DNA from: Deltaproteobacteria bacterium
GTDB taxonomy: Bacteria; Desulfobacterota; Dissulfuribacteria; Dissulfuribacterales; UBA3076
NCBI GenBank assembly: GCA_003194485.1
Contig: PQXD01000001.1
Location: forward strand, 1 to 35,216
Length of the DNA: 35,216 nt
Reading direction: 5' to 3'
Part shown: piece by piece, positions 1 through 6,137 of the stretch
How the letters are laid out: each line of letters opens with the position of its first letter
Position numbering within the stretch: the first letter of the stretch is position 1
Translations under genes and position numbers: made by a program
The notes under the pieces: model-generated
Seen by the model: the letters and a program-made list of their open reading frames with translations, nothing else
Database searches by the model: none
What the model was told of the DNA's origin: nothing

Positions 1-101
1 GGCTCTTTACCACAGCAGCTTGAGGCGGTTTGAAGCCTGCTCCTGCAAGCCGGCTTCGAGGGGCCAAACCCTCATCTTCTGTGCAGTTGCGCACATCTCA
101 A

Positions 102-920
102 CTATATCGAGTGTGCTCGTGGCGCACGGTCATCCGCATACCTTACCAATGTCCCCTTTATCCCTGACAAGGCAAACATCTTGTCAAAGGAGTGCAGGTA
201 AATATTGGCAAGAAGAGGTGATATCACTCCTCCCCGGGGTGTCCCTGTGCCATCTGGTGCGTGAAAGGTTCCTTGGTCCAGAACTCCGGCCTTGAGCCAG
301 TCCCGTATTAATCTCAGTACTCGGGGATCGCTTATGCGGCGCTCAACCAGGTTCATCAGTAGGTCGTGCCGTATGTTGTCGAAATATCCCTTGATGTCCG
401 CATCTATTACCTCCCTGCAGCCCTCAAAGGTTATCTCTCGACGTATCTTGTCTATGGCGTCGTGGCAATCCTTACCTGGACGAAACCCATAGGAACAGGG
501 TAAAAAGTTCGTCTCAAATATAGGCTCGATCACCAGCTTGGTCGCCATCTGGACTACTCGATCCTTTAGTACCGGAATACCGAGGGGCCGTTTCTCAGGT
601 TTCCCAGGCTTGTCTATCCAACAACGGAGTACTGGCTGAGGGCGGTAGGTACGTCTGTGTAATTCCTCCTGTATCTCTTTGAGAAACTCCATCTCCCCTA
701 CCACCTCTTTCACATAGTCAATACTCACGTCGTCCACGCCTGGAGCACCCTTGTTGGACCTTACCCGCTTCCAGGCCATCCAAAGTACGTCTGAACGGTA
801 TATCTTGTCGTACAACGCTCCGAATCTTCTATCCAGCGACTGTTTCGCTGCATGGGACAGTCTGGCCTGCAACTCAGGCACTTTATTACGCACGTTCATA
901 GCTCCTTCTGGAGCACTCAT
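102..920 (-). pseudogene. ltrA: Truncated group II intron reverse transcriptase/maturase
   Basis: This encodes the N-terminal 272 residues of a group II intron-encoded protein, which copies intron RNA into DNA and helps it fold and splice. RT subdomains 0-5 are visible: SNKGAPGVD (about 55-63), [14 protein letters not shown] (111-124), [14 protein letters not shown] (143-156), the first catalytic Asp in DADIKGYFD (173-181), [18 protein letters not shown] (226-243) and the catalytic YADD (261-264). The frame then runs into an unrelated RAPRAHSI tail and a stop, so the thumb, maturase X and any endonuclease domain (normally another 150-300 residues) are absent. No other frame downstream of YADD resumes an RT sequence. 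An inner ATG at 899 is an equally good start. Minus-strand position behind a structured leader fits the usual intron layout. Family call is firm; the protein cannot be active as encoded here. Confidence 0.85.
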
Positions 921-1439: not shown

Positions 1440-1647
1440 GAACCCGCCCCCAGCCTACATATCCAAAAGGGCAACTGATATGATAACCTCCTTTCAGGTT
1501 ATTAGATTACGAGCTCGAGACCTCGTACACGACTGAGATAACCTGCCCGCCGCTGAATCTACCGATTAACTTCTTGGCGGCTACCAGCTTGAATCCACCA
1601 CAAAAATCGCCGACGAGTTGCGGGTCAGGTTAATTGATTTGATATGC
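1440..1647. other. Short non-coding stretch with two hairpins
   Basis: Between the putative intron end and the DUF4145 remnant I see no gene. Two inverted repeats stand out: ATAACCT/AGGTTAT (1483-1502) and TACGAG/CTCGTA (1508-1527). They could be part of the intron insertion site or a decayed terminator. Nothing else is recognised. Confidence 0.3.
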
Positions 1648-2143: not shown

Positions 2144-2590
2144 ATGGCACAAAGATTCCGAAAGCGTAAATGCCGGAACTGTGGTGATTTTTTCATACCA
2201 GACCCACGCAACATCCGGAAACAGAAATACTGCGGAAAACCAGAATGCCGGAAAGCAAGTAAGGCCACTGCTCAGGCCCGTTGGTTGACCAAAAAAGAGA
2301 ACAAAAATTACTTTCGCGGCCCGGAAAATGTCTGCCGTGTCCAAGAATGGCGTAAACACAATCCTGGGTACTGGCGGCGCAAGGGTAATGCGTTACAAGA
2401 TCACTCAAACGAGAAAACCCTGGGAAAACAGTATGTTGTGAAGCAATTAACGAAAGATGCGTTACAAGATCTCTTAATGACGCAACATACTGTTTTAGTG
2501 GGTTTAATCGCTCATTTAACCGGGACTGCGTTACAAGATGACATAGCCAACACCACCCGCCGCCGTTTAAGGGCTTTGAATTACAGATAA
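2144..2590 (+). CDS. Cys-rich IS21-associated accessory protein
   Basis: A 148-residue basic protein. The N-terminus has a compact zinc-finger-like set, CRNCGDFF (10-17) and KYCGKPECRKASKA (about 29-42), followed by RWLTKKENKNYFRGPENV and VQEWRKHNPGYWRR. From memory, proteins with this KYC-x3-ECRKASKA...YFRGPENV...VQEWR...GYWRR layout sit between the left end and istA of IS21-like elements in deltaproteobacteria; their role is unknown, with DNA binding the obvious guess. Oddly, the C-terminal half contains the tetrapeptide ALQD three times, each from the same GCGTTACAAGAT word, at about 2391, 2459 and 2528. Start ATG at 2144 has a weak GGAGG-like stretch about 10 nt upstream. The transposase genes are missing, so this is probably a relic that kept its frame. 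Confidence 0.55.
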   Translation: MAQRFRKRKCRNCGDFFIPDPRNIRKQKYCGKPECRKASKATAQARWLTKKENKNYFRGPENVCRVQEWRKHNPGYWRRKGNALQDHSNEKTLGKQYVVKQLTKDALQDLLMTQHTVLVGLIAHLTGTALQDDIANTTRRRLRALNYR

Positions 2591-2685: not shown

Positions 2686-3051
2686 CTATTTATTCCCAAA
2701 TCCTCGTCTTACCCATGGGATAGCGAAAAGCAGGCCATAAATAAAAAGCCATCCGCCAAAAACCATGGAGAGAACGGATAAGATCTTAATTCTCGGTTCA
2801 AACGAAACAGAGAAGTAAGGATTCCTGCGCAAGATCCTTGACACGGTCTTCGCAGGCAACATTTCTTTGCATTCGGTTTCAAAATAACTGACGAAATATA
2901 AATCCTTGAACTGCTGGTCTTCTGGGAACGGATTAGCGAGAGACTACCTAGCATAGCGAAACTCTTGTACGGTGAAAAGCAGAACTCCTATCGCCCAAAA
3001 AACTGAGAGAATGATACCTAAACGCTGCCAACCACTCAACGACAATTTCAT
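2686..3051 (-). pseudogene. Small membrane protein in a cassette, with in-frame TAG
   Basis: Reading from ATG 3051, the frame gives 35 codons (MKLSLSGWQR start, one membrane helix at about 11-28), then a TAG at 2946-2944, then 85 more codons in the same frame with a second membrane helix near the C-terminus (LSVLSMVFGGWLFIYGLLFA) before a final TAG at 2686. Both halves look like one protein of about 121 residues: helix, polar middle with a Cys, helix, basic tail. The start is set by GGAGG ending 7 nt upstream. The ORF begins 21 nt after an attC-like site, as integron cassette genes do. The family resembles small two-helix membrane proteins common in cassettes; function unknown. The TAG is most simply a nonsense mutation, since TAG also ends this frame and several neighbouring genes. 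Confidence 0.55.
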
Positions 3052-3071
3052 TATCATACCTCCTACCGTCC

Positions 3072-3128
3072 ACCTAACGAAATAAGAGTTTTTGCGGCGC
3101 GAAGCCGACGCCAAAACTCATGTTGAAC
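3072..3128 (-). other. Candidate integron attC recombination site
   Basis: On the minus strand a 57-bp segment starts with GTTCAAC (fits the R'' core RYYYAAC) and ends with GTTAGGT (fits the R' core GTTRRRY). Between them lies an imperfect palindrome: GAGTTTT pairs with AAAACTC, then GGCG and CGGC blocks, around a TTC loop, with unpaired bases on one side. This is the architecture of an attC site near the smallest known size. The gene at 2686-3051 begins 21 nt past R' with its own ribosome binding site, the expected cassette spacing. The R'' box is shared with the inverted end of the neighbouring IS91-type element. No integron integrase gene is in the window. Confidence 0.55.
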
Positions 3129-3136
3129 TGAACCGC
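3120..3136. repeat. Left inverted end of the IS91-type element
   Basis: ATGTTGAACTGAACCGC. It matches the inverted copy at 5485-5501 with one mismatch. The GTTGAAC inside it is also the R'' box of the attC-like site. Confidence 0.55.
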
Positions 3137-3403
3137 CATGGTCGGGGTCATCTTGGAATTTTCTCGACGCCGTTCGGCCGCTTGCAGTATTCTATGACGG
3201 TATTTGGCAGGGAGTCAAGAAGGTAATGCCTGGTTTCCGGCGCAATATAGACTGGTTCTTCGCAGGCACCGGCTGGATTTTTTGTTGGAGCAGCTGAAGT
3301 TGAGGGATATATCCGGTATGTGGACGCACGTGGAGGATGCCGCAGAGACTGCGGCTATCTTGTTCATATAGTGCGCGGGAGCACGGCTTGACGACTGTGG
3401 AAT

Positions 3404-4497
3404 TCATGGAGGAGCCCTCCGTTTTGGGGAGAGAATCGATACCAGGACCATGTAGCCAGTGTGGCAGCAAGGGCACCGAAGGCGGGCGATGCGGGTTGTG
3501 GCCTTGGCTGTCTCGGCTATCTCCTCATTCTCGGTGTCGCTTTCGACAGATGGCTTCAGCTCTTCCTGTAATCGTTTGAGCTTCTCTGGGTGGAGCAGGC
3601 CGAAATGGCGGACCTTGTGGAAGCCCTTGGGAAGGACGTGCTGAAGGAAGCGACGCATGAACTCAGCAGCGGGAAGAGTCATGGTCCGCCATCTGTGCTC
3701 CTTGGAGTCTTTGTAGCAGAAGGTCACGTCGCCATTTTGGAAGGAGAGGATACGGTTGTTCGTGATTGCGATACGGTGGACGTAGCGGGCAAGATACGTA
3801 AGGACCTTGTCAGCGCCTTGTGCGGCAGGTTTGCTATAGACAACCCAATCGGTCTTCCAGACGGACTCCGGGAAGGTGATATCAGGGAGGGCCTTTCTTG
3901 CCAGGGACATGAACTTGCCCGGAAGATCCTTGACAGCGCGGCCACGGGGACAAGATAGTTCCTCCCTGCAGGGAACCTGCTTTGTCCGTCCTTCGAAAGA
4001 CCAATGCCTGGCACGAGACAGTGGATATGCGGATGCCAGATCATGGCCCTTGTCCATGTGTGGAGAACGCAGAGCAGCCCGATCTGTCCACCAACGTATT
4101 TTTCGTCAGCAGCAAGTTTCATGAGTGATCGGGCCGCAGCCAGAAATAAGACATTAAAGAGGATTCTTTGGTGTGAACGGACGATATGGCCTAGTTCTTT
4201 CGGGAGGGTGAACACCACGTGGAAGTAGGTGACAGGAAGAAGATCTCTCCGTCGTCTGCTGAGCCATCTGTCAGTATCGGTTCTATGACATTTTGGACAG
4301 CTTCGGTTTCTACAGGAATGATAGGAATAACGAAGATGGGCGCAGTGGCTGCACTGGGCAAGGTGTCCGCCCAGGGCCTCTGTCCGGCACTCAGTAATAC
4401 TGCAAAGTGCATGCCGATGGCTGGGAAGAACCCTGCCGCCGAAGCGCTCCAGATACTCGACCCCGTGACGCCTGAAGACGTCCGCCAATTCGGCCAT
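3404..4497 (-). pseudogene. tnpA: IS91-family transposase, frameshifted
   Basis: Two overlapping frames together give one transposase of about 365 residues. The first (from ATG 4497) has a zinc-binding segment CSHCAHLRYSYHSCRNRSCPKC (about 48-69, four CxxC-type cysteine positions), then YFHVVFTLPKEL and the HUH-like WHPHIHCLVPG (about 154-164). It reads through NYLVPVAALSRIFR and then loses frame. The second frame resumes with GKFMSLARKALP and carries the YLARYVHRIAITNNRI block that holds the catalytic Tyr region. Joining them needs one extra G in the GGG run at 3918-3920 (minus strand), so a single-base deletion explains the break. The family nicks and transfers single-stranded DNA. The start lies 13 bp after the recombinase stop with an AGGG just upstream. 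Confidence 0.8.
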
Positions 4498-4510
4498 CGC
4501 CCTGAAGTGA

Positions 4511-5353
4511 CTATAGGTCGGCTACCAGACTGCTTAATGCGGCGTTCAGTCTATCGAAGCTCTTCTCGGTAAGATGGGTATAGATGGTTGTGGTCCTTAG
4601 ATACTTGTGGCCTAAAAGGTCCTTGATAATCCTGAGATCTACACCGTCCTCCAGAAGGTGCGTAGCAAAAGAGTGACGCAAGCTATGTACGGAGGCCTTC
4701 TTTGGGATATTGCTTTGGGTAAGCGCGGCCTTGAAGGTCTTTTGAAGCGTACTTTTTGAGATGTGACCAAGCCCCGTGCCGGCTGAGAAGATATAGGGCT
4801 TAGGGCCTTTGGTTACCCAATAGGAACGTAGCAGCTCAAGGGTCCTTTGGGGCAGAGGAACGTAGCGGTCTTTACCCCCCTTTCCATTCTCTACCCGAAC
4901 TAACCTTCTTTCTCCGTCAATATCGGAAACCTTTAGGCAAACAGCCTCACCAAGACGCAGCCCGCATGAATAGATCAAGGTCAAAGCCGTGCGAGAAACA
5001 GGCTTCCTGACCAGGCCCAATATCTGCCGCACTTCCTGTCTCGAAAGCACCACCGGCAACTTCTGTCTTTTCTTTGAACGAATTACATCAAGAACCGGCC
5101 ACTGCCGTCTGAGCGTGGTTTGATAGAAAAACTTGATCCCATAGAGATACACCCGTAGCGTACTGCATGCAGCTTTCTTCTCATTGACGAGATACAGAAA
5201 GAACTCCCGGAGTTCTTCCTTGCTAATCTGGTCGGAAGACCGATCAAAATGCCTTGCAAGACCTCTCACCGCTGCCGCATAACAGTGCTGCGTCTTCTCC
5301 GAGAAACCGTGCAACTGCATGTCTTCGATCATCCGGCGTCTGAGCTGAGTCAT
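4511..5353 (-). CDS. Tyrosine recombinase of the IS91-type element
   Basis: A 280-residue site-specific recombinase. The N-terminal SAM-like DNA-binding domain covers about 1-90, and the catalytic domain carries the full set: R133 in SCGLRLGEAVCL, K159/K161 in GKGGKD, H223 and R226 in HSLRHSFATHLLE, H249 in LLGH, and nucleophile Y258 in TTIYTHL. It lacks the extra block between GKGGKDR and HSLRHS that marks integron integrases, so it is not IntI. Short XerC/D-like enzymes of this type are known to accompany IS91-like transposases, where they may resolve or circularise transfer products. The start is fixed by GGAGG 5 nt upstream of ATG 5353. A strong terminator on the same strand just upstream shields it from outside transcription. 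Confidence 0.85.
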   Translation of the reverse strand: MTQLRRRMIEDMQLHGFSEKTQHCYAAAVRGLARHFDRSSDQISKEELREFFLYLVNEKKAACSTLRVYLYGIKFFYQTTLRRQWPVLDVIRSKKRQKLPVVLSRQEVRQILGLVRKPVSRTALTLIYSCGLRLGEAVCLKVSDIDGERRLVRVENGKGGKDRYVPLPQRTLELLRSYWVTKGPKPYIFSAGTGLGHISKSTLQKTFKAALTQSNIPKKASVHSLRHSFATHLLEDGVDLRIIKDLLGHKYLRTTTIYTHLTEKSFDRLNAALSSLVADL

Positions 5354-5440
5354 GACATCCTCCTTTCTCGTTAAGGGTTACGATCTATCTATCGATCATA
5401 ACAAAGGAGAACTCATGTCCCGGCCTCTTGATACGCCAGA

Positions 5441-5467
5441 TGAAAAAGGCAGCCTGAGTGGCTGCCT
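5441..5467 (-). terminator. Rho-independent terminator upstream of the recombinase
   Basis: A perfect 8-bp stem, AGGCAGCC/GGCTGCCT (5447-5467), with a 5-nt loop is followed on the minus strand by a T run (5443-5447). Minus-strand transcription entering from outside would stop here, about 90 bp before the recombinase start. Insulating terminators inside element ends are a common way to limit read-in expression. Confidence 0.65.
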
Positions 5468-5476
5468 CAATAGGCT

Positions 5477-5501
5477 ACCGCGAAGCGGTTTAGTTCAACA
5501 T
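5477..5501. repeat. Right inverted end of the IS91-type element, with hairpin
   Basis: GCGGTTTAGTTCAACAT at 5485-5501 is the inverted partner of 3120-3136. It overlaps a perfect hairpin, ACCGC-GAA-GCGGT, at 5477-5489. Subterminal hairpins are typical of ends recognised by HUH transposases. Confidence 0.5.
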
Positions 5502-6051
5502 TATATATTAAGCAGACTCTACTTTTTTAAGAATACCGCAAATCACAAAATCCATACACGGATTCAATGAAAAAATCAAGAAAACGGTCTTTTTTGATTA
5601 ATATTAGGCCGATACGGCCGATAAAGTCAGAGAGGGCATATGCTTTTTGAAGGCGTGCTTTTTATAAATGAAGCCCGGAAGTCTGCTTTTTCATGCTTAT
5701 TTGGGTATTATGCAGAGTCTGTATAATTATGGGGATTTGTTATTTTGAGGGGTACAGTGGAACATTTCAGAAGAGCTTGGTGTGAGTCCCCAGGCTGTTT
5801 ATGCAGCTTCTGGGGGATCGGACGCAGAAGCCCTGGGCGCCGCCTCCAGTTTTGCATCGTCCAGATGCTCCCGCACAGAGCCGCCCGCGCCCGCTCCAGA
5901 CGCTCCATGATCTCCGGCCAGTAGCCCGTTCTATCCAGGCTGTCCACCAGGGCGGAGGAGTTCCGGGCGCATTTCGTTTTTGTTGATAGACTTAACCTGC
6001 TGCCAAAGCGGCTCGATGAAAGTTGCTGAAACACAGTTTCCATCAGGGGCA
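5502..6051. other. Gene-free spacer between the IS element and lon
   Basis: About 550 bp without a credible gene. 5502-5700 is AT-rich, with a near-palindrome GGCCGATACGGCC at about 5608. From 5760 to 6050 the minus strand has coding-like stretches in shifting frames (for example a segment reading LVDSLDRTGYWPEIMERLER, then VREHLDDAKLEAA in another frame), which suggests a decayed gene I cannot identify. Confidence 0.3.
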
Positions 6052-6137
6052 TTCGCCTTCTGCGGGGATTCGATCGCGGGCAAAATGCACTATCTTTTAG
6101 TATGGCAATGAAGTAACTTTGAAATCCGAAAAAGATG
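6052..6137. repeat. Dispersed ~87-bp repeat, copy 1 (upstream of lon)
   Basis: About 86 bp align with 13108-13195 in the same orientation at roughly 70-75% identity by eye. The shared blocks include ATCGCGGGC, TGCACT, GCAATGA, CTTTGAAA and CCGAAAAAG. The two loci are non-coding and 7 kb apart, so this is a dispersed element rather than a gene duplication. TGCACT and GCAATGA flank a short non-conserved centre. Confidence 0.6.

What the first reader, a model, noticed from the sequence alone, without database searches (positions are those of the whole stretch)
2686..3128. attC-like site and cassette gene without an integron integrase
A 57-bp site with R'' and R' core boxes and a palindromic interior sits 21 nt ahead of a small membrane-protein gene with a well-placed ribosome binding site. 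This is the layout of a mobile gene cassette (a CALIN-type cluster lacking integrase). The site is joined directly to the end of an IS91-type element.
Basis: partly seen in the sequence, partly recalled or inferred. Interest (0 to 1): 0.65.

Follow-up and report, generated by a model that had tools for sequence, protein, structure and literature searches.

The report
Transposon end mimicking an integron site
The hairpin that looked like an integron cassette site is mostly the end of a transposon that carries its own tyrosine recombinase and has landed exactly at the insertion point of a decayed integron, and its relatives also land at recombinase crossover sites, which hints at a second natural system that moves DNA through folded single strands.

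Summary
The site exists, but about 50 of its 57 bases are the 3' end of an IS91-type element (3079-5499, minus strand) that encodes a Y2 transposase and a tyrosine recombinase (TyrRec). The same hairpin sits at the same end of relatives in other genomes. An attC covariance model does not find it. The "R''" box is the element's inverted repeat. Only the "R'" box (GTTAGGT) belongs to the target.

That target is an integron. Beyond the element's other end (5500-5770) lies a repeat copied elsewhere in this genome and in congeners. I read it as attI with the first codons of intI. Joining the flanks restores attI|GTTAGGT + gene, so the gene is a first-position cassette. It is broken by an in-frame TAG.

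Relatives behave alike. One splits an attC in an in-phylum genome and one splits an attC in Salinivibrio; others lie beside cassettes or intI. Six on rhizobial, Herpetosiphon and Legionella plasmids split dif-like sites (CATAA-N6|TTATG). The joined ends fold like attC.

Best reading: an IS91+TyrRec family that inserts at tyrosine-recombinase crossover sites, possibly through a folded single strand. Anatomy and targeting are shown by sequence; catalysis is inferred. A 2025 paper reported attC sites at ISCR28 ends but read them as cassette shuffling.

The parts
3079..5499 (-). IS91-type element with a tyrosine recombinase (2421 bp), from its 5' (ter) end at 5499 to its 3' (ori) end at 3079; single copy in this genome
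   Evidence: Inverted repeats at the ends; ends conserved in relatives and fixed by pairs of copies; one copy only
4511..5353 (-). Tyrosine recombinase (280 aa), Xer/integron-integrase-like but below the integron-integrase cut-off (201.9 vs 265 bits) and without model positions ~175-234
3404..4497 (-). IS91-type Y2 (HUH) transposase, broken: two overlapping frames (4497-3724 and 4057-3404), with a shift/deletion around 3877-3915
   Evidence: Zn_Tnp_IS91 and Y2_Tnp matched in two frames
3122..3136 (-). Element's right inverted repeat GCGGTTCAGTTCAAC; its last 7 nt were read as the attC R'' box
   Evidence: complement of the left repeat at 5485-5499
3086..3119 (-). Terminal hairpin of the element (read as attC L''/L'), followed by a 7-nt tail TTATTTC (3085-3079)
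   Evidence: same layout (AAC, hairpin, 4-8-nt tail, target) in 12 relatives
5485..5499 (-). Element's left inverted repeat GTTGAACTAAACCGC (ter end)
3072..3078 (-). GTTAGGT: cassette 5' boundary / insertion target (read as R' box)
   Evidence: GTTAGG also precedes the homologous gene in L012
2689..3051 (-). Cassette gene: small membrane protein, 120 codons, broken by TAG at 2944-2946; homologue in L012
2640..2666 (-). Remnant that resembles the 5' half of the cassette's own attC (TATCAAATCACTGCACCCGACCGCC), cut off by other DNA
   Evidence: (repeat D5); tentative
5500..5744 (-). attI region of the decayed integron, ending ..CTTAATATATAAT directly at the element's ter end
   Evidence: Copies in own genome and congeners, each followed by GTT + a different gene or by the same IS; L138 carries attI-cassette-attC
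5745..5771 (+). Remnant of the divergent intI start (MRGTVEHFR..), truncated
   Evidence: L140 copy continues into an N-terminal domain homologous to full IntI of congeners

Best explanation
The attC-like site is the 3' terminal hairpin (ori end) of an IS91-family element that also encodes a Xer-like tyrosine recombinase. The element has inserted, without target duplication, exactly at the crossover point of an integron's attI (..TATATAAT|GTTAGGT). It now separates attI from a first-position cassette whose gene is also broken by a stop codon. How it most likely works: the Y2 transposase makes a single-stranded circle of the element. In the circle the two inverted repeats pair around the terminal hairpin and form a two-armed folded site like attC or the CTXphi attachment site. 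The element's own recombinase then joins this folded site to double-stranded tyrosine-recombinase crossover sites: attI and attC in integron-bearing hosts, dif-like sites on rhizobial, Herpetosiphon and Legionella plasmids. Shown by sequence: the element ends, the hairpin as part of the element, the reconstructed attI, attC and dif-like targets, and the fold of the joined ends (predicted). Inferred: the single-stranded circle, catalysis by the element's recombinase, and which strand reacts. My estimates: hairpin is the element's end 0.95; window target is attI 0.88; family inserts at tyrosine-recombinase crossover sites 0.75; own recombinase acting on the folded strand 0.45.
For: Hairpin belongs to the element: 86% identity over the site with a relative's end, against 66% in the transposase gene. 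Two copies in G161 and two in G132 share their terminal hairpins up to the target, with different flanks. The same layout, with different stem sequences, occurs in 12 relatives. The inverted repeats co-vary (GTTCAAC/GTTGAAC here, GTGCAAC/GTTGCAC in L029, CTTGAAC/GTTCAAG in L036). No attC model hit. Target is attI: copies of 5500-5770 in own genome and congeners end at ATATATAAN, mostly followed by GTT and different genes. One copy runs into the N-terminus of an intI-like gene. L138 carries attI-gene-attC (27.1 bits)-next gene. L139 in a congener has an internally deleted copy of the same element at the same attI point. Family targets: L036 splits a perfect attC (GCCTAAC..|..GTTAGGC; 20 proximal pairs, 7/7 box pairs). 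L169 in Salinivibrio splits an attC. attC hits of 28-41 bits within 1.5 kb of the ori end in L030, L034 and L041. IntI fragment 176 bp from L029. Element next to intI and two cassettes in L101. dif-like CATAA/CATAG/GATAA-N6|TTAT sites in L045, L046, L047, L049, L050 (N5), L167; arm matching 54, against 40.2 +/- 2.6 for mispaired flanks, 0 of 5000 as high. The joined ends fold into outer arm, asymmetric loop and inner arm in four elements.
Against: Several copies sit at plain GTT without a recognisable recombinase site (L032, L037, L038), and L120 not even at GTT. A transposase preference for GTT could therefore explain part of the pattern. L036 and L101 lie on the strand opposite to normal cassette insertion. 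No circle, excision product or activity has been observed; the transposase in the window is broken. The arm-matching test includes junctions that I set by eye after seeing the pattern. Identification of attI rests on homology of an N-terminal domain (33% identity) and on context, not on an assay.
Confidence: 0.75

Rival explanations
1. Genuine integron attC site in front of a gene cassette (CALIN), with an IS91-type element that happens to end beside it.
For: R''/R' boxes, stem, cassette-like spacing; the gene's homologue does follow an attC elsewhere.
Against: No attC-model hit; the hairpin travels with the element in unrelated genomes and different loci; the true upstream integron site, attI, is on the other side of the element.
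Confidence: 0.05
2. The element is an IS91 transposon whose transposase alone chooses a GTT-type target (as IS91 is known to use GTTC/CTTG); integron R boxes and dif-like arms are hit because they contain GTT/TTAT, and the recombinase is a passenger or a resolvase.
For: GTT at nearly every in-phylum junction; some copies at plain GTT (L032, L037, L038).
Against: GTT is far too common to give precise attI, attC and dif-like hits in so many copies; the junctions outside the phylum show matched arms with a 6-nt spacer; the recombinase is kept upstream of the transposase in the window's phylum, Chloroflexota, rhizobia, Legionella and Salinivibrio.
Confidence: 0.3
3. The element is moved by integron integrases as if it were a cassette, its hairpin serving as attC (the reading given for ISCR28 in PMC12772301).
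For: In the window it occupies exactly the place of a first cassette: attI|element|cassette; the joined ends fold like attC; a published report of attC sites at ISCR28 ends (PMC12772301).
Against: Ends do not score as attC; L036 and L101 are inserted at R'' in the opposite orientation, which bottom-strand IntI recombination does not give; relatives in dif-like sites without a nearby integron need another enzyme.
Confidence: 0.2

Closest known systems
IS91 family / ISCR elements (Y2 HUH, rolling-circle)
   Same: Zinc-binding and Y2_Tnp domains, hairpin at the transposase 3' end (oriIS-like), no target duplication, GTT-containing target
   Different: Carries an upstream Xer-like tyrosine recombinase; two good inverted repeats; targets are recombinase crossover sites
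ISCR28 with 'attC at its end' (PMC12772301)
   Same: IS91-like element beside integrons with an attC-like site at the ori end
   Different: There read as a real attC and cassette shuffling (data not shown); here the hairpin is shown to be the element's own end in relatives that are not beside integrons
IS1111-attC group (Tetu & Holmes 2008; Post & Hall 2009; see PMC11187229)
   Same: Insertion sequences that target integron attC sites
   Different: DEDD transposase guided by seekRNA, unrelated to HUH/TyrRec; not reported at attI or dif-like sites as far as I know
Integron cassette attC and CTXphi folded attP
   Same: Single-stranded two-armed hairpin with an unpaired spacer joined to a double-stranded TyrRec site (attI/dif)
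   Different: CTXphi borrows XerCD and integrons use IntI; this element appears to bring its own recombinase plus a transposase that could make the single strand (inferred)
Group IIC-attC introns and IMEX elements
   Same: Mobile DNA exploiting attC or dif as landing sites
   Different: Different enzymes (reverse transcriptase; host Xer)

Membership tests
Integron attC site | R'' RYYYAAC and R' GTTRRRY boxes with a stem between | tested here: met
   GTTCAAC / GTTAGGT, z -2.6 to -3.0
Integron attC site | Match to an attC covariance model (L boxes, pairing, spacing) | tested here: not met
   Model R1 finds arrays of true attC but nothing here with filters off, E<=10
Integron attC site | Belongs to the 3' end of a gene cassette | tested here: not met
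   Belongs to the 3' end of the IS91+TyrRec element
IS91 family | Y2 (HUH) transposase with zinc-binding N-terminus | tested here: met
   PF14319 and PF04986, in two frames
IS91 family | Ori-end hairpin, no target duplication | tested here: met
   (attI flank and GTTAGGT each once)
IS91 family | Tetranucleotide target GTTC/CTTG at the ori end | tested here: inconclusive
   GTTA here; GTTN in most in-phylum copies, TTAT in others
Integron integrase (for the element's recombinase) | TIGR02249 above cut-off, full length | tested here: not met
   201.9 < 265 bits, positions 175-234 missing
Integron (the target) | attI with divergent intI | tested here: met
   attI repeat and truncated intI start; full-length intI only elsewhere
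Integron (the target) | attI/attC recombination activity | not testable with these tools
   Needs an assay
IS1111-attC group | DEDD transposase | tested here: not met
   Transposase is Y2 HUH

The most novel reading that the evidence does not exclude
IS91+TyrRec elements are a self-contained system for single-stranded hairpin integration: an HUH transposase makes the strand, and the element's own tyrosine recombinase joins a folded attC-like junction to attI, attC or dif-like sites. That would be an analogue of cassette integration independent of integrons, and a candidate intermediate for how integrons came to recombine folded single strands.
Probability: 0.4. Interest if true: 0.82.

Novelty: new variant of a known kind. 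Interest (0 to 1): 0.62.

Why it matters
Escudero et al. 2016 (PMC4792948) name CTXphi as the only reaction known to resemble cassette recombination, and note that it lacks its own integrase. A widespread element with a transposase, a recombinase and a folded junction would be a second and complete case, open to direct test. In practice, box-and-stem scans can read the ends of such elements as attC sites and report false CALINs, as happened here. Reports of attC at ISCR ends (PMC12772301) should be rechecked. The elements also disconnect cassettes from attI, which is one way integrons decay.

Tried and rejected
Box-plus-stem scanning alone: gives several other sites in the window, not discriminating. 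Pattern search for more copies of the site in the genome: I set the spacer wrongly, so it is uninformative. The idea that cassettes dock onto the element's hairpin (because attC signals were lacking beyond the ter end): dropped for the window once the ter flank proved to be attI. The dispersed repeat at 5500-5770 as a MITE or an over-long attC: rejected because one copy runs into intI and another heads an attI-cassette-attC array. Searching plasmids, phages and 395 in-phylum genomes for the cassette protein: no further homologue. In-phylum integron loci for attC training gave few arrays, so plasmid integrons were added. The class-level search was limited to 46 genomes and found only the window's own copy. 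Structure prediction was not used; the argument does not need it.

Full report
WHAT IS AT THE SITE. The 57-nt site is on the minus strand, 3128->3072, as read by the first stage. It folds better than shuffles (z about -2.6 to -3.0). The gene behind it starts at 3051 and encodes a 120-codon small membrane protein, but codon 36 is TAG, so it is broken. Sites with the same boxes and some stem occur elsewhere in the window, so the motif by itself proves little.

THE HAIRPIN IS THE TRANSPOSON'S END. Upstream lies an element with a tyrosine recombinase (4511-5353) and an IS91-type Y2 transposase split over two frames. Its ends are a 17-nt inverted repeat, 3120-3136 and 5485-5501, and the supposed R'' box is part of it. 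Relatives were taken from other genomes of the phylum. In L029 the stretch 3073-3136 is 86% identical although the transposase DNA is only 66% identical. Two copies in one genome (L037/L038, 99.8%) and two in another (L032/L033, 89%) carry their terminal hairpin inside the shared block while the flanks differ. Twelve relatives share one layout: inverted repeat ending in AAC (AT-C in one), a hairpin with varying stem sequence, a 4-8-nt tail, then the target. The inverted repeats co-vary between the two ends (GTTCAAC/GTTGAAC, GTGCAAC/GTTGCAC, CTTGAAC/GTTCAAG).

attC MODEL. I built a covariance model from 13 real attC sites of plasmid and phylum integrons. It recovers arrays of attC in other loci, including three of the same order. 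With filters off it gives no match at 3072-3128. It does match the site directly in front of the gene's only homologue, in a Desulfobacteraceae MAG contig (L012 4013-4069, 20.5 bits, E 0.0026). That homologue, 63% identical, also begins behind GTTAGG. So the gene is a cassette gene, but the window site is not its attC.

THE TARGET IS attI. The element's other flank, 5500-5770, is a repeat with copies in the same genome and in congeners. Each copy ends ..TTAATATAT(AAN) and most are then followed by GTT and a different gene. One copy (L140) continues into a frame whose protein is homologous (33%, E 2e-7) to the N-terminal part of full integron integrases of the same genus and family. The window keeps about nine codons of that start. 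Another copy (L138) heads a small array: attI, GTTAACC, small membrane gene, attC (27.1 bits), GTTGTAC, next gene. Joining the flanks of the element in the window therefore gives attI|GTTAGGT + cassette gene. A congener has an internally deleted copy of the same element at the same point of an attI in another place (L139). The genome also has an intact intI on contig 3 and a broken one on contig 61.

THE FAMILY'S TARGETS. L036 sits exactly inside an attC of a three-attC array; the joined flanks give GCCTAAC-hairpin-GTTAGGC with all seven box pairs. L169, on a Salinivibrio plasmid, splits an attC-like site whose joined flanks fold end to end. L030, L034 and L041 have attC hits of 41, 28.5 and 29.7 bits 0.5-1.4 kb beyond the ori end. 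L029 lies 176 bp from an integron-integrase fragment (227.7 bits). L101 abuts a cassette next to an intI. On rhizobial, Herpetosiphon and Legionella plasmids the joined flanks read CATAA, CATAG or GATAA, six bases (five in L050), then TTAT: a dif-like site cut at the edge of its central region. Arm matching at these junctions is 54, against 40.2 +/- 2.6 for mispaired flanks (0 of 5000), with the caution that I placed the junctions after seeing the pattern. L032, L037 and L038 show no such site, and L120 not even GTT.

MECHANISM. When the two ends are joined, the inverted repeats pair around the terminal hairpin and leave an unpaired spacer, giving outer arm, spacer, inner arm and loop in the window element, L029, L036 and L047. 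This is the plan of attC and of the folded CTXphi site. The proposal that the transposase makes the single strand and the element's own recombinase joins the fold to attI, attC or dif-like sites is inference. The recombinase is Xer-like and fails the integron-integrase cut-off. Alternatives are a plain GTT preference of the transposase, or shuffling by IntI as suggested for ISCR28 (PMC12772301).

LITERATURE. Targeting of attC is known for the unrelated IS1111-attC group (cited in PMC11187229) and for group IIC introns (PMC7923331). PMC12772301 reports attC sites at ISCR28 ends (data not shown). PMC4792948 states that only CTXphi resembles cassette recombination. I found no report in the open-access library of IS91-type elements at attI or dif-like sites; subscription papers are mostly missing. 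The GTTC/CTTG target of IS91 is from my own knowledge.

Noticed in passing
window 1-920 (minus strand): A group II intron reverse transcriptase is cut right behind its YADD motif by what looks like the 5' end of a second group II intron (GTGCGCC at about 92; Rfam RF01999 match 73-1): a nested intron pair at the contig end.
   Followed up: partly
window 1525-1647 (minus strand): Best attC-model hit of the window (22.1 bits, E 0.006): a 12-bp L''/L'-type stem with poor R boxes, ending where the outer group II intron appears to begin, in the same orientation. PMC7923331 describes a group IIB intron just downstream of an attC.
   Followed up: partly
G000 C3:1-2324 (L009): The genome's intact intI with a HigBA toxin-antitoxin cassette and two attC-like sites running towards the contig end.
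   Followed up: partly
G000 C59 (L135), C38 (L136), C10 (L137); congeners L138-L145: Several dispersed attI copies per genome, each with its own downstream gene and mostly decayed intI: many small integron relics in one genus.
   Followed up: partly
window about 6052-6133: A ~80-nt repeat with about 25 copies (73-78%) across the genome.
   Followed up: no
L009 11818-11959 and L010 1219-1362: Very strong ~140-nt palindromes with ACTTAAC..GTTAAAC ends, similar to each other, in two contigs of the genome.
   Followed up: no
window 2388-2546 (plus strand): Three 21-nt repeats (ATGCGTTACAAGAT..) spaced 69 nt inside a 148-aa frame of unknown function.
   Followed up: no
L041 start: The end of a second element copy lies about 30 bp upstream of the ter end: tandem copies, as rolling-circle transposition might leave.
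   Followed up: no
L047, L164: Rhizobial copies lie directly beside three-integrase clusters (recombinase-in-trio type).
   Followed up: no
L171 (Acinetobacter pittii plasmid): A related recombinase stands beside tet(X5), without the transposase in the stretch shown; may be the 'xerD' of tet(X)-ISCR2 regions (from memory).
   Followed up: no
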